This document shows positions 25,725 to 29,711 of a DNA stretch of 43,363 bases, piece by piece. The stretch's first letter is position 1, and each line of letters begins with the position of its first letter. Below the pieces are notes generated by a model that was given only the letters and a program-made list of their open reading frames with translations, ran no database searches and was not told where the DNA came from. A program made the position numbers and the translations under genes. This DNA is from Woeseiaceae bacterium (GTDB lineage: Bacteria; Pseudomonadota; Gammaproteobacteria; Steroidobacterales; Woeseiaceae). The DNA lies in assembly GCA_021773035.1 (NCBI GenBank), contig JAJFKU010000007.1, positions 1 to 43,363 of the forward strand, read 5' to 3'.

Positions 25725-27101
25725 TTGAACGGAATAGCAACGAAACTCGCCACGGTAATAGGCGCGCAAAGCGTACTCGATTCGAGTGCCGTGGCGGAGC
25801 GCGCGACGAGTTACTGGAATAGTTCACCGATGCAGGCGGCGGCGTTGGCGATGCCTTCGACGACCGCGGAGATCGCAGAGATTCTGCAGACCTGTGACGC
25901 ATCCGGGCAGTCGGTCATCACGCATGGCGGTTTGACCAACTGCGTGTCGGCCGTTGAACCTGCTGGCGACGACCTGGTTCTATCGACCGAAAAAATGCGT
26001 GGCATTATCGAGATCGACAAAATCGGTGGCACCGCAGTCGTAGAAGCCGGTGCAATTTTGCAAAACGTACAGGAAGCCGTTGCCGAGGAAGGGTTTCGGT
26101 TCCCTCTGGATCTCGGCGCGCGGGGTAGTTGTACGATCGGCGGTAACATTGCGACAAACGCCGGGGGTATCAACGTGTTGCGCTATGGGATGGCCAGGAG
26201 CCTGGTGCTCGGTCTCGAGGCGGTGCTGGCAGACGGCACGGTCGTGTCTTCAATGAATCGTATGCTTAAAAACAACGCCGGCTACGACACGAAGCAGCTT
26301 TTCATTGGCACAGAGGGGTCGCTTGGTATCGTCTCCCGTGCCGTGCTGCGTCTGTTTCCACAGCCGGCCAGCCGCCAGAATGCGCTGGTCGCGATGCGCG
26401 GTTTTGACGATGTTATCGAGTTTTTGGGGCTGGTCCGCCAGCAGCTCGCAGGCTCGCTGAGTGCTTTCGAGGTGATGTGGGGCGACTACTATCATGCGGT
26501 GACCGCGGATGGCGGCCTGCGAGCACCGCTCGCCCGCGATCACGCCTATTACGTTGTATTTCAGGCCGAAGGCAGCGACCCGGTCGCCGACGATGAGCGC
26601 TTCGAGCAGGTGCTTGGTATGGCGCTCGATGGCGGTGTTATCGCCGACGCCGTGATACCGAAGTCGGAAGCGGAGGTGCGTGACATCTGGCGCGTGCGTG
26701 AGGATTTCGATGCAGTCCTTGAGCCGGCCCCCTGCTACCTGTACGACGTCAGCTTGCCAATCCGGGACATGGAAGCGTATGTCGCCGACGTTAAGCGGCG
26801 TGTGTCGAGCCGCTGGCAGAATGGCCGCTGTTTTACGCTGGGACATATGGCAGACGGTAATCTGCATTTCTTCGTGTCACCGTGCGAAACGGGTGATCAC
26901 CATCAAAGTGCGAACGAGTGTGTCTATGAGCCGCTGCGTCCGCTCGGAGGCTCGGTGTCTGCGGAGCACGGTATCGGTACGGAAAAGCTATGTTGGTTGC
27001 CGCACAGTCGCAGCGTGGCGGACATCGAGCTGATGCGGACGCTAAAGCGCAGCCTGGATCCCAACAACATCCTGAATCCTGGCCGGGTGTTCGGGGTCTG
27101 A
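25725..27101 (+). CDS. FAD-linked oxidase (GlcD / D-2-hydroxyacid dehydrogenase type)
   Basis: 458 aa from a TTG at 25725, preceded by GGAG. The FAD_binding_4 (PCMH) domain covers about 40-215, with VITHGGLTN, GSCTIGGNIATNAGG and FIGTEGSLGIV. The FAD-oxidase C-terminal domain includes GHMADGNLHFFV (about 372-383), SAEHGIG and a LDPNNILNPGRVF end. These place it in the GlcD/D-lactate/D-2-hydroxyglutarate dehydrogenase group. The stop codon and preceding Val codon belong to the left terminal repeat of the palindromic element at 27096, so its last residues may have changed on insertion. Its divergent position next to dgcNA suggests oxidation of a D-glutamate-derived 2-hydroxy acid; that is inference. 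Confidence 0.88.
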   Translation: MNGIATKLATVIGAQSVLDSSAVAERATSYWNSSPMQAAALAMPSTTAEIAEILQTCDASGQSVITHGGLTNCVSAVEPAGDDLVLSTEKMRGIIEIDKIGGTAVVEAGAILQNVQEAVAEEGFRFPLDLGARGSCTIGGNIATNAGGINVLRYGMARSLVLGLEAVLADGTVVSSMNRMLKNNAGYDTKQLFIGTEGSLGIVSRAVLRLFPQPASRQNALVAMRGFDDVIEFLGLVRQQLAGSLSAFEVMWGDYYHAVTADGGLRAPLARDHAYYVVFQAEGSDPVADDERFEQVLGMALDGGVIADAVIPKSEAEVRDIWRVREDFDAVLEPAPCYLYDVSLPIRDMEAYVADVKRRVSSRWQNGRCFTLGHMADGNLHFFVSPCETGDHHQSANECVYEPLRPLGGSVSAEHGIGTEKLCWLPHSRSVADIELMRTLKRSLDPNNILNPGRVFGV

Positions 27102-27134
27102 CCTGACTTCGACGCACTGGGATTTGCGCAGGGT

Positions 27135-27209
27135 CATCGATCTGGAGAGGTATACCGGAATGGCTCCCTGCGGTCCGCTTTATTTCCGGTATACCTCTCC
27201 AGATCGATG
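27135..27209. repeat. Hairpin 1 of the palindromic element
   Basis: 26-bp perfect inverted repeat (CATCGATCTGGAGAGGTATA and six further bases) with a 23-base loop at 27161-27183. The loop is the exact reverse complement of the loop of hairpin 2. Confidence 0.85.
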
Positions 27210-27286
27210 CCTTGAGACAGTTGCCGGTACGTCCGGGTCAGAGCAGATACGAAGTGCTGACCGGACGACTACGTTAAGTGTTGTAA

Positions 27287-27370
27287 GCGGGCGGGTGAGA
27301 GAGTGTTTACAGGAAATAAAGCGGACCGCAGGGAGCCATTCCTTGTAAATACTCTGTCGCCCGTCCGCCT
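27287..27370. repeat. Hairpin 2 of the palindromic element
   Basis: Imperfect inverted repeat: AGAGTGTTTACAGGAA pairs with TTCCTTGTAAATACTCT, and an outer GCGGGCGGG pairs with CCCGTCCGC. The loop is at 27316-27338. The stem sequence differs from hairpin 1 but is still self-complementary. Confidence 0.7.
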
Positions 27371-27477
27371 GCGCCGATTACCGTTCGCCGAAGTCAGGTC
27401 AGACACAGCTGTCGCGAGGCTACGATTGCTTACGCTTAAGTAAGTGCCATTCGGGTCAGACCCTTGTCCGCGCGTGA

Positions 27478-28698
27478 TTAAGGTAGAAAGATCGTTGCCG
27501 GGTGTTCCAGCATTTCCTTGATACGTTGAATCATCGCTGCTGCATCGTAGCCATCGACGAAGCGATGGTCGAACGATGACGACAGATTCATCATCAGCCG
27601 CACCGCGATCTGACCGTTAACCACCATGGGACGTTCGACGGCACGGTTTACGCCAATGATGCCAACCTCCGGCAGGTTGATGACGGGAGTCGATGCGATA
27701 CCACCGAGTTTTCCAAGGCTCGTGATGGTGATGGTCGACCCGGACAGTTCGTTTTTCTTCGCACTATTGTCGCGGGCGGCTTCCGTTACGCGGCGAATGC
27801 TGTTCGCGAGGCCGTCGATATCCAGAATCTCAGCGTGTTTGACAACCGGCACCTTAAGGCCATCGGGAGTTTGTGTCGCGACGCCGAGGTGTACGGCTTC
27901 GTGCTGCAACAACACATTGCGCTCTTTGTCGTAGGTTGAATTGCACTGTGGAAACTCTCTCAAGGCACGCATCAACGCGAGGCCCAGGAAAGGCAGCAAC
28001 GTCAATCGGTCGGAGCCACCGCCTCTACGGCAGTTCAAGTGTTTTCGCAATGCCTCAAGTTCGGTGATGTCGATTTCCTCGACGTAGGCAAAGTGCGGGA
28101 TTTCCTGTTTTGCCCGGCTCATGCGTTCGGCAATGATGCGGCGCAGGCCGATAACCTTGATTTCCTTGACGGCGGTAGACGGCGTCACGACCTGTGCAGC
28201 TGCTACACCGCTGGCCTGAGTTTGCAGATAGTTGTCGAAATCCCTGCGCTGAATCCGCCCGCCCGCGCCGGTGCCCGGAACGAGGTTCAGATCGATGCCG
28301 GCCTCTTTCGCCCGGCGTCGGATAGCCGGAGAGGTCATAACGCGTGCACGCGTCTCGCCCGCGGTTTTCGACGCGGCTTTAACCCCGGATGTCGGCTTTG
28401 CTTGCGCTTCCGGGACAGGCGGCGCAGCGGCTGACGGTTCTGGAGTCGTCGTTGCACGGTCGGTTTCGAAGACGACCAGCGCGGCACCGACGGCTACGAT
28501 GTCTCCCGGCTCGCCGGCAAGTTTTACGACGGTACCGCTGACCGGAGAGGCGAGTTCAACGGCGGCCTTGTCCGTCATCATGGTGCCGACAACCGCTTCT
28601 TCATCGACGAATTCACCGACTTTGATGAACCACTCGCCGATTTCAGATTCGACCGTGCCTTCGCCGAGATCCGGCAGTTTGAAAATGTGTTCGCTCAT
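27478..28698 (-). CDS. bkdB: Dihydrolipoamide acyltransferase (E2) of branched-chain 2-oxo acid dehydrogenase
   Basis: 406 aa from the ATG at 28698 (MSEHIFKLPDLGEG), with GGAGG just upstream; the frame is open to 28761. One lipoyl domain (about 1-80) has the lipoylated Lys44 in MTDKAAVE. An Ala/Pro linker leads to a peripheral-subunit-binding domain (about 120-158) with SPAIRRRAKEAGIDL. The catalytic 2-oxoacid dehydrogenase domain ends with FDHRFVDGYDAA (HxxxDG). A single lipoyl domain and the neighbouring leucine dehydrogenase and E1 genes support a BKD rather than a pyruvate complex. It moves acyl groups from E1 to CoA. It overlaps the E1 beta stop by four bases (ATGA). No E3 gene is present here. 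Confidence 0.93.
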   Translation of the reverse strand: MSEHIFKLPDLGEGTVESEIGEWFIKVGEFVDEEAVVGTMMTDKAAVELASPVSGTVVKLAGEPGDIVAVGAALVVFETDRATTTPEPSAAAPPVPEAQAKPTSGVKAASKTAGETRARVMTSPAIRRRAKEAGIDLNLVPGTGAGGRIQRRDFDNYLQTQASGVAAAQVVTPSTAVKEIKVIGLRRIIAERMSRAKQEIPHFAYVEEIDITELEALRKHLNCRRGGGSDRLTLLPFLGLALMRALREFPQCNSTYDKERNVLLQHEAVHLGVATQTPDGLKVPVVKHAEILDIDGLANSIRRVTEAARDNSAKKNELSGSTITITSLGKLGGIASTPVINLPEVGIIGVNRAVERPMVVNGQIAVRLMMNLSSSFDHRFVDGYDAAAMIQRIKEMLEHPATIFLP

Positions 28699-29711
28699 CC
28701 CGCCTCCATTACTCTGCGTATGCCAGCCGACATCCGTTTCAGTCCCGGGAAATACTGCCATTCAAACGCGTGCGGGTAAGGGGTGTCCCAGCCCGCGACC
28801 CGGCCGATAGGTACTTCAAGACTGTAAAAGCACTCCTTTTGCACGGTTGCGGCCAACTCGGCACCGTAGCCGCCGAATCGTGTCGCTTCGTGGGCGACCA
28901 GGCAACGACCGGTTTTGTTCACCGAGTCGGCCAGTGTTGCAACATCGAGCGGCGCCATCGTGCGGACATCGATGACTTCGGCATCAACGCCGGTCTCCGC
29001 AGCCGCGGCAATCGCGATATGGACCAGCGTTCCGTAGGTGACGATGGTCAGTTCCTCGCCGGGCCGGGCGACGTCTGCCTTGCCAAGCGGGACCGTATAG
29101 TGTCCCTCGGGCACCTCGCCCTTGGGATGGGAGTTCCACGATACCGCGGGTTTTTCGGGGTCGCCGTCGAAGGGGCCGTTGTAAATTCGTTTCGGCTCGA
29201 AGAATACGACCGGGTCATTGGACTCGATGGCGCTGATCAACAGCCCCTTCGCGTCGTAGGGATTTGATGGCATGACCGTTTTGATGCCGGTGACGTGCGT
29301 AAAAATACCCTCCGGCGACTGCGAGTGTGTTTGTCCTCCGCGGATACCGCCTCCACACGGGGTACGAATAGTCACCGGCGAAAAGAACTCTCCGCAGGAG
29401 CGATAGCGCAGTCGTGCAAGCTCGCTGACGATCTGGTCGAACCCGGGATAGATATAGTCCGCGAACTGAATCTCGGCCACGGGCCGCAGGCCGTTCACGC
29501 CCATACCGATCGCCGCGCCGATAATGCCACCCTCGGAAATCGGCGCATCGATAACACGGTGTTCGCCGTATTTACGCTGCAGCCCGTCGGTGCAGCGGAA
29601 GACACCGCCGAAGTAACCGACGTCTTCTCCCAGTACGATGACGCTCGGGTCCCTGTCCATGACAATGTCATGGGCGGAGCGAATGGCTTCGATCATGTTC
29701 ATCCGCGCCAT
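28695..29711 (-). CDS. bkdA2: Branched-chain 2-oxo acid dehydrogenase E1 beta subunit
   Basis: 338 aa, full length for E1 beta. The transketolase-type pyrimidine-binding domain (about 4-180) contains VLGEDVGYFGGVFR and GLRPVAEIQFADYIYPGFDQI. The C-terminal transketolase domain has EVIDVRTMAPLD and VAHEATRFGGYGAE. It pairs with E1 alpha to decarboxylate 2-oxo acids from Leu, Ile and Val using thiamine diphosphate. Its ATG shares one base with the E1 alpha stop (TAATG), and its own stop overlaps the E2 start, so the three subunits are translationally coupled. Confidence 0.93.
   Translation of the reverse strand: MARMNMIEAIRSAHDIVMDRDPSVIVLGEDVGYFGGVFRCTDGLQRKYGEHRVIDAPISEGGIIGAAIGMGVNGLRPVAEIQFADYIYPGFDQIVSELARLRYRSCGEFFSPVTIRTPCGGGIRGGQTHSQSPEGIFTHVTGIKTVMPSNPYDAKGLLISAIESNDPVVFFEPKRIYNGPFDGDPEKPAVSWNSHPKGEVPEGHYTVPLGKADVARPGEELTIVTYGTLVHIAIAAAAETGVDAEVIDVRTMAPLDVATLADSVNKTGRCLVAHEATRFGGYGAELAATVQKECFYSLEVPIGRVAGWDTPYPHAFEWQYFPGLKRMSAGIRRVMEAG

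What the first reader, a model, noticed from the sequence alone, without database searches (positions are those of the whole stretch)
27096..27404. A 309-bp concentric palindromic element with an inverted, invariant apical core
Seen directly: 16-bp terminal inverted repeats, two large hairpins, a central hairpin and two identical 31-bp cores in opposite orientation, all sharing one centre near 27250. The two hairpin stems differ in sequence, yet each is self-complementary, which looks like compensatory change. The two 23-base loops are exact complements, so the RNA or single-stranded DNA could switch between two separate hairpins, kissing loops, or one long 31-bp stem. No coding gene explains it. 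It resembles a paired REP/BIME or a MITE, but with a conserved loop and variable stems, the opposite of what is usual for REP sequences.
Basis: partly seen in the sequence, partly recalled or inferred. Interest (0 to 1): 0.85.

Follow-up and report, generated by a model that had tools for sequence, protein, structure and literature searches.

The report
Strand-specific DNA hairpin repeat family
Between two genes of a Woeseia-like bacterium sits one copy of a dispersed family of predicted long hairpins whose stems change sequence yet stay self-complementary while the 23-base tip hardly changes; they are likely mobile sites that an unidentified enzyme would read on one DNA strand only, a kind of repeat for which our searches found no description.

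Summary
The 309-bp element is real: 12 near-full copies in its genome, this one included. Its two predicted hairpins belong to a wider family: a covariance model hits 60 of 73 congeneric genomes and one distant genome of the class. The 23-base tip is nearly constant; the stems fall into 60 sequence clusters but are self-complementary in 131 of 140 hairpins. 25 of 26 stem pairs show two-sided changes, and two short helices inside the tip covary around a GNA triloop, as in the hyperstable DNA mini-hairpin d(GCGNAGC). Mismatches are strand-biased: the strand reading ATAAAGCGGACCG.AGGGAGCCA carries G.T, G.A and G.G, rarely A.C, never C.C; its arms fold better in 46 cases against 4 (34 against 4 in a second set). 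That strand is not tied to transcription (10 same, 11 opposite). Pairs are almost always inverted; sites lie mostly at gene 3' ends. It resembles REP/REPIN elements, but their defining features (GTAG/CGTC tag, short stem, neighbouring Y1 transposase) were tested and not met. Mobility, recognition as single-stranded DNA and the enzyme are inferred.

The parts
27096..27404 (.). whole palindromic element, one of 12 near-full copies found in this genome
27096..27111 (+). left 16-bp terminal inverted repeat (overlaps the stop codon of the upstream ORF)
27389..27404 (-). right 16-bp terminal inverted repeat
27135..27209 (-). predicted hairpin 1; the favoured strand is the minus strand; perfect stem
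   Evidence: model coordinates (this copy is in the model)
27161..27183 (-). 23-base tip of hairpin 1 (reads ATAAAGCGGACCGCAGGGAGCCA on the minus strand)
27167..27173 (-). predicted mini-hairpin CC-GCA-GG inside tip 1 (GNA triloop, covarying outer pair)
27233..27264 (+). small central hairpin between the two long ones
   Evidence: seen; alignment of copies
27290..27365 (+). predicted hairpin 2; the favoured strand is the plus strand; stem with one bulge and mismatches
   Evidence: model coordinates (this copy is in the model)
27316..27338 (+). 23-base tip of hairpin 2
27326..27332 (+). predicted mini-hairpin CC-GCA-GG inside tip 2

Best explanation
The element is a pair of inverted long repeats, predicted to form hairpins, from a dispersed family whose tip is nearly constant while the stems change sequence and stay self-complementary, and it is likely a non-autonomous mobile repeat that a still unidentified enzyme would recognise as folded single-stranded DNA of one specific strand. 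Shown by sequence: multi-copy dispersal, inverted pairing, covarying stems, covarying pairs inside the tip, a strand-specific mismatch spectrum, and placement mostly at gene 3' ends irrespective of the direction of transcription. Inferred: that the folded form is DNA rather than RNA, that the tip (AATAAAGCG.. and ..GAGCCATT around a GNA mini-hairpin) is the recognition signal and the stem only a scaffold, and that copies spread through a trans-acting single-strand nuclease or recombinase working in the style of REP (TnpA-REP) or integron attC systems. Inverted pairs would put one recognisable hairpin on each strand. Maintenance in place across species suggests that copies either stay active or have gained a host role at transcript ends.
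For: Dispersal: 12 near-full copies in the genome; model hits in 60 of 73 genus genomes, up to 62 in one (best 66 candidates per genome scored); near-identical hairpins at 7 and 5 loci of two other genomes; the rpsJ-rplC spacer has a hit in 23 of 50 genomes and none in 27. Covariation: 131 of 140 hairpins, sampled by loop pattern, have complementary arms, median score 26 against 6 for arms of different hairpins; 60 cluster representatives: 89.1% of cells paired against 58.4% shuffled and 35-48% slid, 555 doubly changed cells against 166, 25 of 26 stem pairs changed on both sides; tip pair 37-43 is CG 47, GC 12, AU 1 and pair 32-47 GC 58, AU 2, the two AU being one element; in place at one locus in 7 species: 10 pairs doubly changed, 19 cells against 6.9. 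Strand: isolated mismatches on the favoured strand G.T 36, G.A 15, G.G 15, A.A 5, A.C 4, C.T 2, T.T 1, C.C 0 in 60 representatives; 38 hairpins lean one way, 2 the other, 20 neither; DNA folding of the arms with a neutral loop favours that strand 46 to 4 with 10 ties; second set of 39 hairpins 34 to 4 with 1 tie. Favoured strand equals the mRNA strand in 10 of 21 tandem singles and 8 of 22 in an overlapping earlier set. Inverted pairs: 50 of 51, 20 of 20. A GNA loop on two G-C pairs is the hyperstable DNA mini-hairpin (PMC4686876, passages).
Against: No enzyme was found; 0 of 31 Y1 transposase loci carry a hairpin within about 1.5 kb. No target-site duplication or clean boundary was established and no transposition was seen; empty rpsJ-rplC spacers could also be losses. 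Stems are maintained in place across species, which selfish repeats need not do. G.T is the commonest mismatch, which RNA would also allow; RNA energy rules favour the same strand for the arms (43 to 6) and, less clearly, for whole hairpins (41 to 19), against 54 to 6 with DNA rules. No significant replication-strand bias of 56 singles (22 on the G-rich strand, 34 on the other, p 0.14). Part of the tip conservation is ascertained, because the 140 hairpins were collected with a loop pattern; spacers and model hits show departures from GNA.
Confidence: 0.55

Rival explanations
1. A structured RNA family: the hairpin acts in transcripts (3'-end stabiliser, attenuator or protein-binding RNA), and the stem is kept by RNA selection.
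For: Sites cluster at gene 3' ends: 29 convergent, 26 tandem, 6 divergent, against 21/51/28% of spacer bases in the same stretches; 24 of 26 tandem sites nearer the upstream gene's end. G.T is the commonest tolerated mismatch, and RNA energy rules favour the same strand.
Against: The favoured strand is as often antisense as sense to the upstream gene (11 to 10; 14 to 8); an inverted pair puts opposite strands into any one transcript; G.G plus G.A mismatches (30) nearly equal G.T (36), and G-U makes only 66 of about 1365 paired stem cells (summed); no Rfam family reaches its cut-off in the window.
Confidence: 0.2
2. Dead repeats whose arms are kept identical by quasipalindrome correction (template switching), with no function.
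For: Long locus-specific, nearly perfect inverted arms outside the shared part of several copies (L004, L005, L010); recombinant hairpins and loop rearrangements. Template-switch correction is an established mechanism (seen in a search listing).
Against: Correction is blind to which strand carries the tip, yet mismatches are strand-biased in two sets and the outer pair of the tip mini-hairpin covaries as well.
Confidence: 0.12
3. A single-strand initiation site or replication-linked signal: the tip recruits priming machinery when the strand is exposed.
For: The constant-tip, variable-stem design resembles single-strand origins of rolling-circle plasmids (recalled; only a search listing was seen); DNA-type mini-hairpin.
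Against: No significant replication-strand bias in 56 singles; patchy presence, no hit in 13 of 73 genus genomes at the cut-off used.
Confidence: 0.06
4. An ordinary REP/REPIN family mobilised by a RAYT (Y1 transposase).
For: Inverted dimers, intergenic, gene 3' ends, dispersed copies across the genus.
Against: No GTAG or CGTC tag (GTAG in 9 of 60, CGTC in 11 of 60 five-prime flanks); stems median 32 bp against 5-13 bp in the REP survey; 0 of 31 Y1 loci carry a hairpin; no Y1 match in 5 of 17 and 10 of 20 hairpin-bearing genomes, 8 of these 15 being at least 90% complete.
Confidence: 0.07

Closest known systems
REP / BIME / REPIN with TnpA-REP (RAYT)
   Same: Dispersed intergenic palindromes, inverted dimers with a short spacer, gene 3' ends, strand-specific recognition of a folded single strand (PMC8266576 abstract, introduction and passages; PMC3733652 passages). 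REPINs too show compensatory changes in a variable hairpin part (PMC3116915 passages).
   Different: Stem about 32 bp instead of 5-13 bp; the constant part is a structured tip, whereas in REPINs it is the outer ends and the inner spacer varies; no GTAG/CGTC tag; no neighbouring Y1 gene.
Integron attC sites
   Same: Structure on one strand only is what matters, with little sequence conservation of the stem (PMC2727003, start of abstract in a search listing).
   Different: Here the tip is the constant part; integrases and attC boxes were not searched for.
MITEs, e.g. those of Coxiella burnetii (PMC5896051, passages)
   Same: Short, non-coding, terminal inverted repeats, 100-400 bp.
   Different: No related transposon and no duplication found; stems vary beyond recognition while the tip is constant.
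GNA-loop DNA mini-hairpin d(GCGNAGC)
   Same: The tip ends in x-C-GNA-G-x', mostly with two G-C pairs; the stability is stated in PMC4686876 (passages).
   Different: Known as a chemical motif; here it is the predicted apex of a natural repeat.

Membership tests
REP (GTAG/CGTC) | unpaired GTAG or CGTC tag at one end | tested here: not met
   GTAG in 9 of 60 and CGTC in 11 of 60 five-prime flanks of the favoured strand, 1 and 10 of 60 on the other side
REP (GTAG/CGTC) | short stem (5-13 bp) and loop of 2-20 nt | tested here: not met
   median stem 32 bp by ungapped extension; tip 23 nt, in variants 44 nt and more; limits from PMC3733652 passages
REP (GTAG family) | cognate RAYT gene flanked by the repeats | tested here: not met
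   0 of 31 Y1_Tnp loci hold a model hit at E up to 1; no Y1 match in 15 of 37 hairpin-bearing genomes, several of them incomplete
REPIN/BIME | inverted dimers | tested here: met
   50 of 51, 20 of 20, 38 of 39 de-duplicated; overlapping sets; singles exist as well
MITE | terminal inverted repeats | tested here: met
   16 bp exact in the window; variable, absent on one side or extended in other copies
MITE | target-site duplication and parent transposase | tested here: inconclusive
   no consistent duplication seen by eye in flanks of 16 copies; no transposase among the 25 recurrent ORF groups printed
integron attC | conserved R/L boxes, gene cassettes, integrase | not tested
   only the general design was compared
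known RNA families (Rfam 15) | match at gathering score | tested here: not met
   0 matches in the window; in six loci 16 matches below the gathering score, 11 of them microRNA precursors, best E 1e-8

The most novel reading that the evidence does not exclude
A new class of mobile single-stranded-DNA site, defined by its tip and not its stem: a constant AATAAAGCG/GAGCCATT motif around a GNA mini-hairpin, carried on an arbitrary long stem and read on one strand by an enzyme that is neither a RAYT nor an integron integrase, shared by distant members of one bacterial class.
Probability: 0.4. Interest if true: 0.9.

Novelty: new variant of a known kind. Interest (0 to 1): 0.72.

Why it matters
It shows a repeat family under strand-specific structural selection with the roles of loop and stem exchanged relative to REP sequences, and its predicted apex is a DNA mini-hairpin known mainly from chemistry. 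The mismatch spectrum gives a simple way to tell, from sequence alone, which strand of a palindrome is the functional one. If the reading holds, it points to an unknown single-strand DNA enzyme in Woeseia-like bacteria, and the constant tip makes a direct bait for finding it.

Tried and rejected
Kissing loops or a long-stem switch as the conserved function: rejected, 24 of 38 de-duplicated inverted pairs have unequal loops. RAYT partner: rejected. Autonomous parent with a gene between two hairpins: the one candidate, G035 contig 15 (L137), holds an ORF without a Pfam match at E 0.001; I take it for an unrelated insertion, which is a guess. Recurrent neighbouring gene families: among the 25 groups printed none looked like a transposase to me; they were orthologous loci, common families or the repeats themselves (judged by eye). 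Replication-strand bias: not significant. Coding reading of the core: its arms are not conserved as codons (by eye). Plasmids and viral contigs: no match. Literature: no paper of the held library holds any of five 15-letter core strings; a second letter search listed only 20 of 120 papers, none of these with the tip letters; topic searches (25 of 51 listed, all listed) showed no such family. Other literature was not searched. Rfam. The origin of the locus-specific outer arms stays unexplained.

Full report
OBSERVATION. The element starts at the stop codon of an FAD-linked oxidase ORF (25725-27101) and faces the end of a 2-oxoacid dehydrogenase E2 ORF on the other strand (27478-28761), so it lies between convergent genes.

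FAMILY IN THIS GENOME. Blast finds 12 copies, the window copy included, that cover at least 274 of 309 nt, the other 11 at 85-93% identity, and many fragments. The 22-nt core with up to 2 mismatches occurs 33 times; the reversed control 0 times. Three loci (L017, L018, L021) carry a shortened version, the arms of the two hairpins around one tip with 21 extra nt, and a fourth (L020) a rearranged relative; the same or nearly the same extra stretch is in a tip at the ribosomal locus of this and two other genomes (L177, L170, L183).

FAMILY ELSEWHERE. The 27-nt core is in 33 of 73 genus genomes at up to 3 mismatches, 28 of 296 genomes of the order at up to 2, and a 23-nt core in none of 397 other genomes drawn from the phylum at up to 1 (no other member of the order was in that draw). 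The 30 named contig stretches with exact cores are titled Woeseiaceae bacterium, Woeseia sp. or Gammaproteobacteria bacterium; one titled Woeseiaceae matches the congener G035 in contig length and positions, hence 'Woeseia-like'. A covariance model built on 60 representatives, the two window hairpins among them, reaches further: 60 of 73 genus genomes, and 3 of 369 genomes of the class: the own one, one congener and G332, a distant genome with 6 copies (stricter filters, at most 13 candidates scored per genome). In G332 the tip keeps AATAAAGCG and GAGCCATT but its apex is longer, in 4 of 6 copies GGCC-GAA-GGCC, and the stems again differ between copies and pair.

COVARIATION. I collected 140 distinct hairpins by a loop pattern (up to 2 substitutions), not by their stems. 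Their left arms fall into 60 clusters at 75% identity, yet 131 of 140 have complementary arms by the threshold used; median local score 26, against 6 for arms taken from different hairpins. The 60 representatives align without gaps. With the structure named in advance, 89.1% of cells pair (58.4% when shuffled, 35-48% when slid), 555 cells have changes on both sides (166 shuffled), and 25 of 26 stem pairs have two-sided changes; the last, the A-T pair closing the tip, never varies. Inside the 23-base tip, pair 37-43 is CG 47, GC 12, AU 1; pair 38-42 never varies; pair 32-47 is GC 58, AU 2 (both AU from one element, L149); pair 33-46 is CG 59, other 1, with one T-A seen at the ribosomal locus. 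They surround a triloop that is mostly GNA on one strand, with all four N seen. C-GNA-G with two G-C pairs is the hyperstable DNA mini-hairpin (PMC4686876, passages). Caveat: the sampling pattern favours GNA; spacers and model hits show departures such as ACA, AAC and TCA.

IN-PLACE EVOLUTION. The spacer between rpsJ and rplC was measured in 50 of the 53 genomes with an rpsJ match (393-745 nt). In the model search it holds a pair of hits in 13, one hit in 10 (two of them weak, E about 0.007) and none in 27 (letters). Seven orthologous second hairpins, those of model length 75, show 10 doubly changed pairs and 19 such cells against 6.9 shuffled. A second spacer, shared by three species according to ORF similarity, also carries members.

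STRAND. A palindrome offers two strands. On the strand that reads ATAAAGCGGACCGMAGGGAGCCA, isolated mismatches in the 60 representatives are G.T 36, G.A 15, G.G 15, A.A 5, A.C 4, C.T 2, T.T 1, C.C 0; 38 hairpins lean that way, 2 the other, 20 neither. Folding the arms with a neutral loop favours that strand 46 to 4 with DNA rules and 43 to 6 with RNA rules; over all 140 it is 104 to 19 and 90 to 29; whole hairpins give 54 to 6 with DNA rules but only 41 to 19 with RNA rules. A second set of 39 hairpins, chosen from 59 of the 99 hits, gives G.T 25 against A.C 5, and 34 to 4. Selection therefore appears to see this strand. It is not the transcript: among single hairpins between tandem genes it equals the mRNA strand in 10 of 21 and in 8 of 22 of an earlier, partly overlapping set. 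It has no significant replication bias (22 to 34, p 0.14). I read this as selection on folded single-stranded DNA; the step from 'one strand' to 'DNA' is inference.

ARCHITECTURE AND PLACE. Pairs are inverted in 50 of 51, 20 of 20 and 38 of 39 after stricter removal of duplicates; these sets overlap, and both polarities occur. Inner spacing clusters at 112-132 nt. Of 76 groups in 60 stretches, 61 had both neighbours within 800 nt: 29 convergent, 26 tandem, 6 divergent, while spacer bases in the same stretches are 21, 51 and 28%; the other 15 had no predicted gene near enough. An earlier count gave 35 tandem, 24 convergent, 1 divergent and 2 inside a predicted gene, with 35 at locus edges left out. 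Gene prediction was a simple codon-usage script of mine.

ENZYME. The own genome has one Y1 transposase match, flanked by GGGGTCAGAGCCC repeats, not by these hairpins. Y1 matches are missing in 5 of 17 and 10 of 20 further hairpin-bearing genomes; 8 of these 15 are at least 90% complete, among them G218, G006, G066, G034 and G332. None of 31 Y1 loci holds a model hit. No other candidate emerged.

VERDICT. A new REP-like class: it is built like a strand-specific folded site and dispersed like a mobile repeat, but it is not a REP by the three defining features tested. Mobility, DNA recognition and the tip as the signal are inferred.

Noticed in passing
window 27430-27465: A second repeat type (GCTTAAGTAAGTGCCATTCGGGTCAGACCC) lies just beyond the element; similar stretches lie near other copies (L003, L014, L019), and GGGGTCAGAGCCC flanks the genome's only Y1 match (L157). 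In the window itself GGGTCNGACCC with one mismatch is not above chance (3 against 1.5 expected).
   Followed up: partly
L137 1981-3210: A 409-codon open frame without a Pfam match lies between two arm copies of a core hairpin in G035, as if cargo had entered a hairpin.
   Followed up: partly
L017, L018, L021 (and L020): Shortened elements with one tip carrying 21 extra nt (L020 rearranged); the same or nearly the same variant occurs at the rpsJ locus of three genomes.
   Followed up: partly
L213 (rpsJ-rplC spacer): A tip enlarged by about 70 nt of foldable sequence, so the apex tolerates long additions.
   Followed up: no
L010, L004, L005, L018: Locus-specific, nearly perfect inverted arms (about 15 to more than 40 bp) outside the shared part of the element; origin unexplained.
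   Followed up: partly
L199, L200, L206, L208, L209: The same rpsJ-rplC slot holds other GTAGGAGCGG/GTGGGAGCGG-type or related palindromic repeats in other genomes (by eye), so it may be a general landing place.
   Followed up: no
L132: A hairpin with the left arm of one stem type and the right arm of another, joined at the core: a likely recombinant.
   Followed up: no
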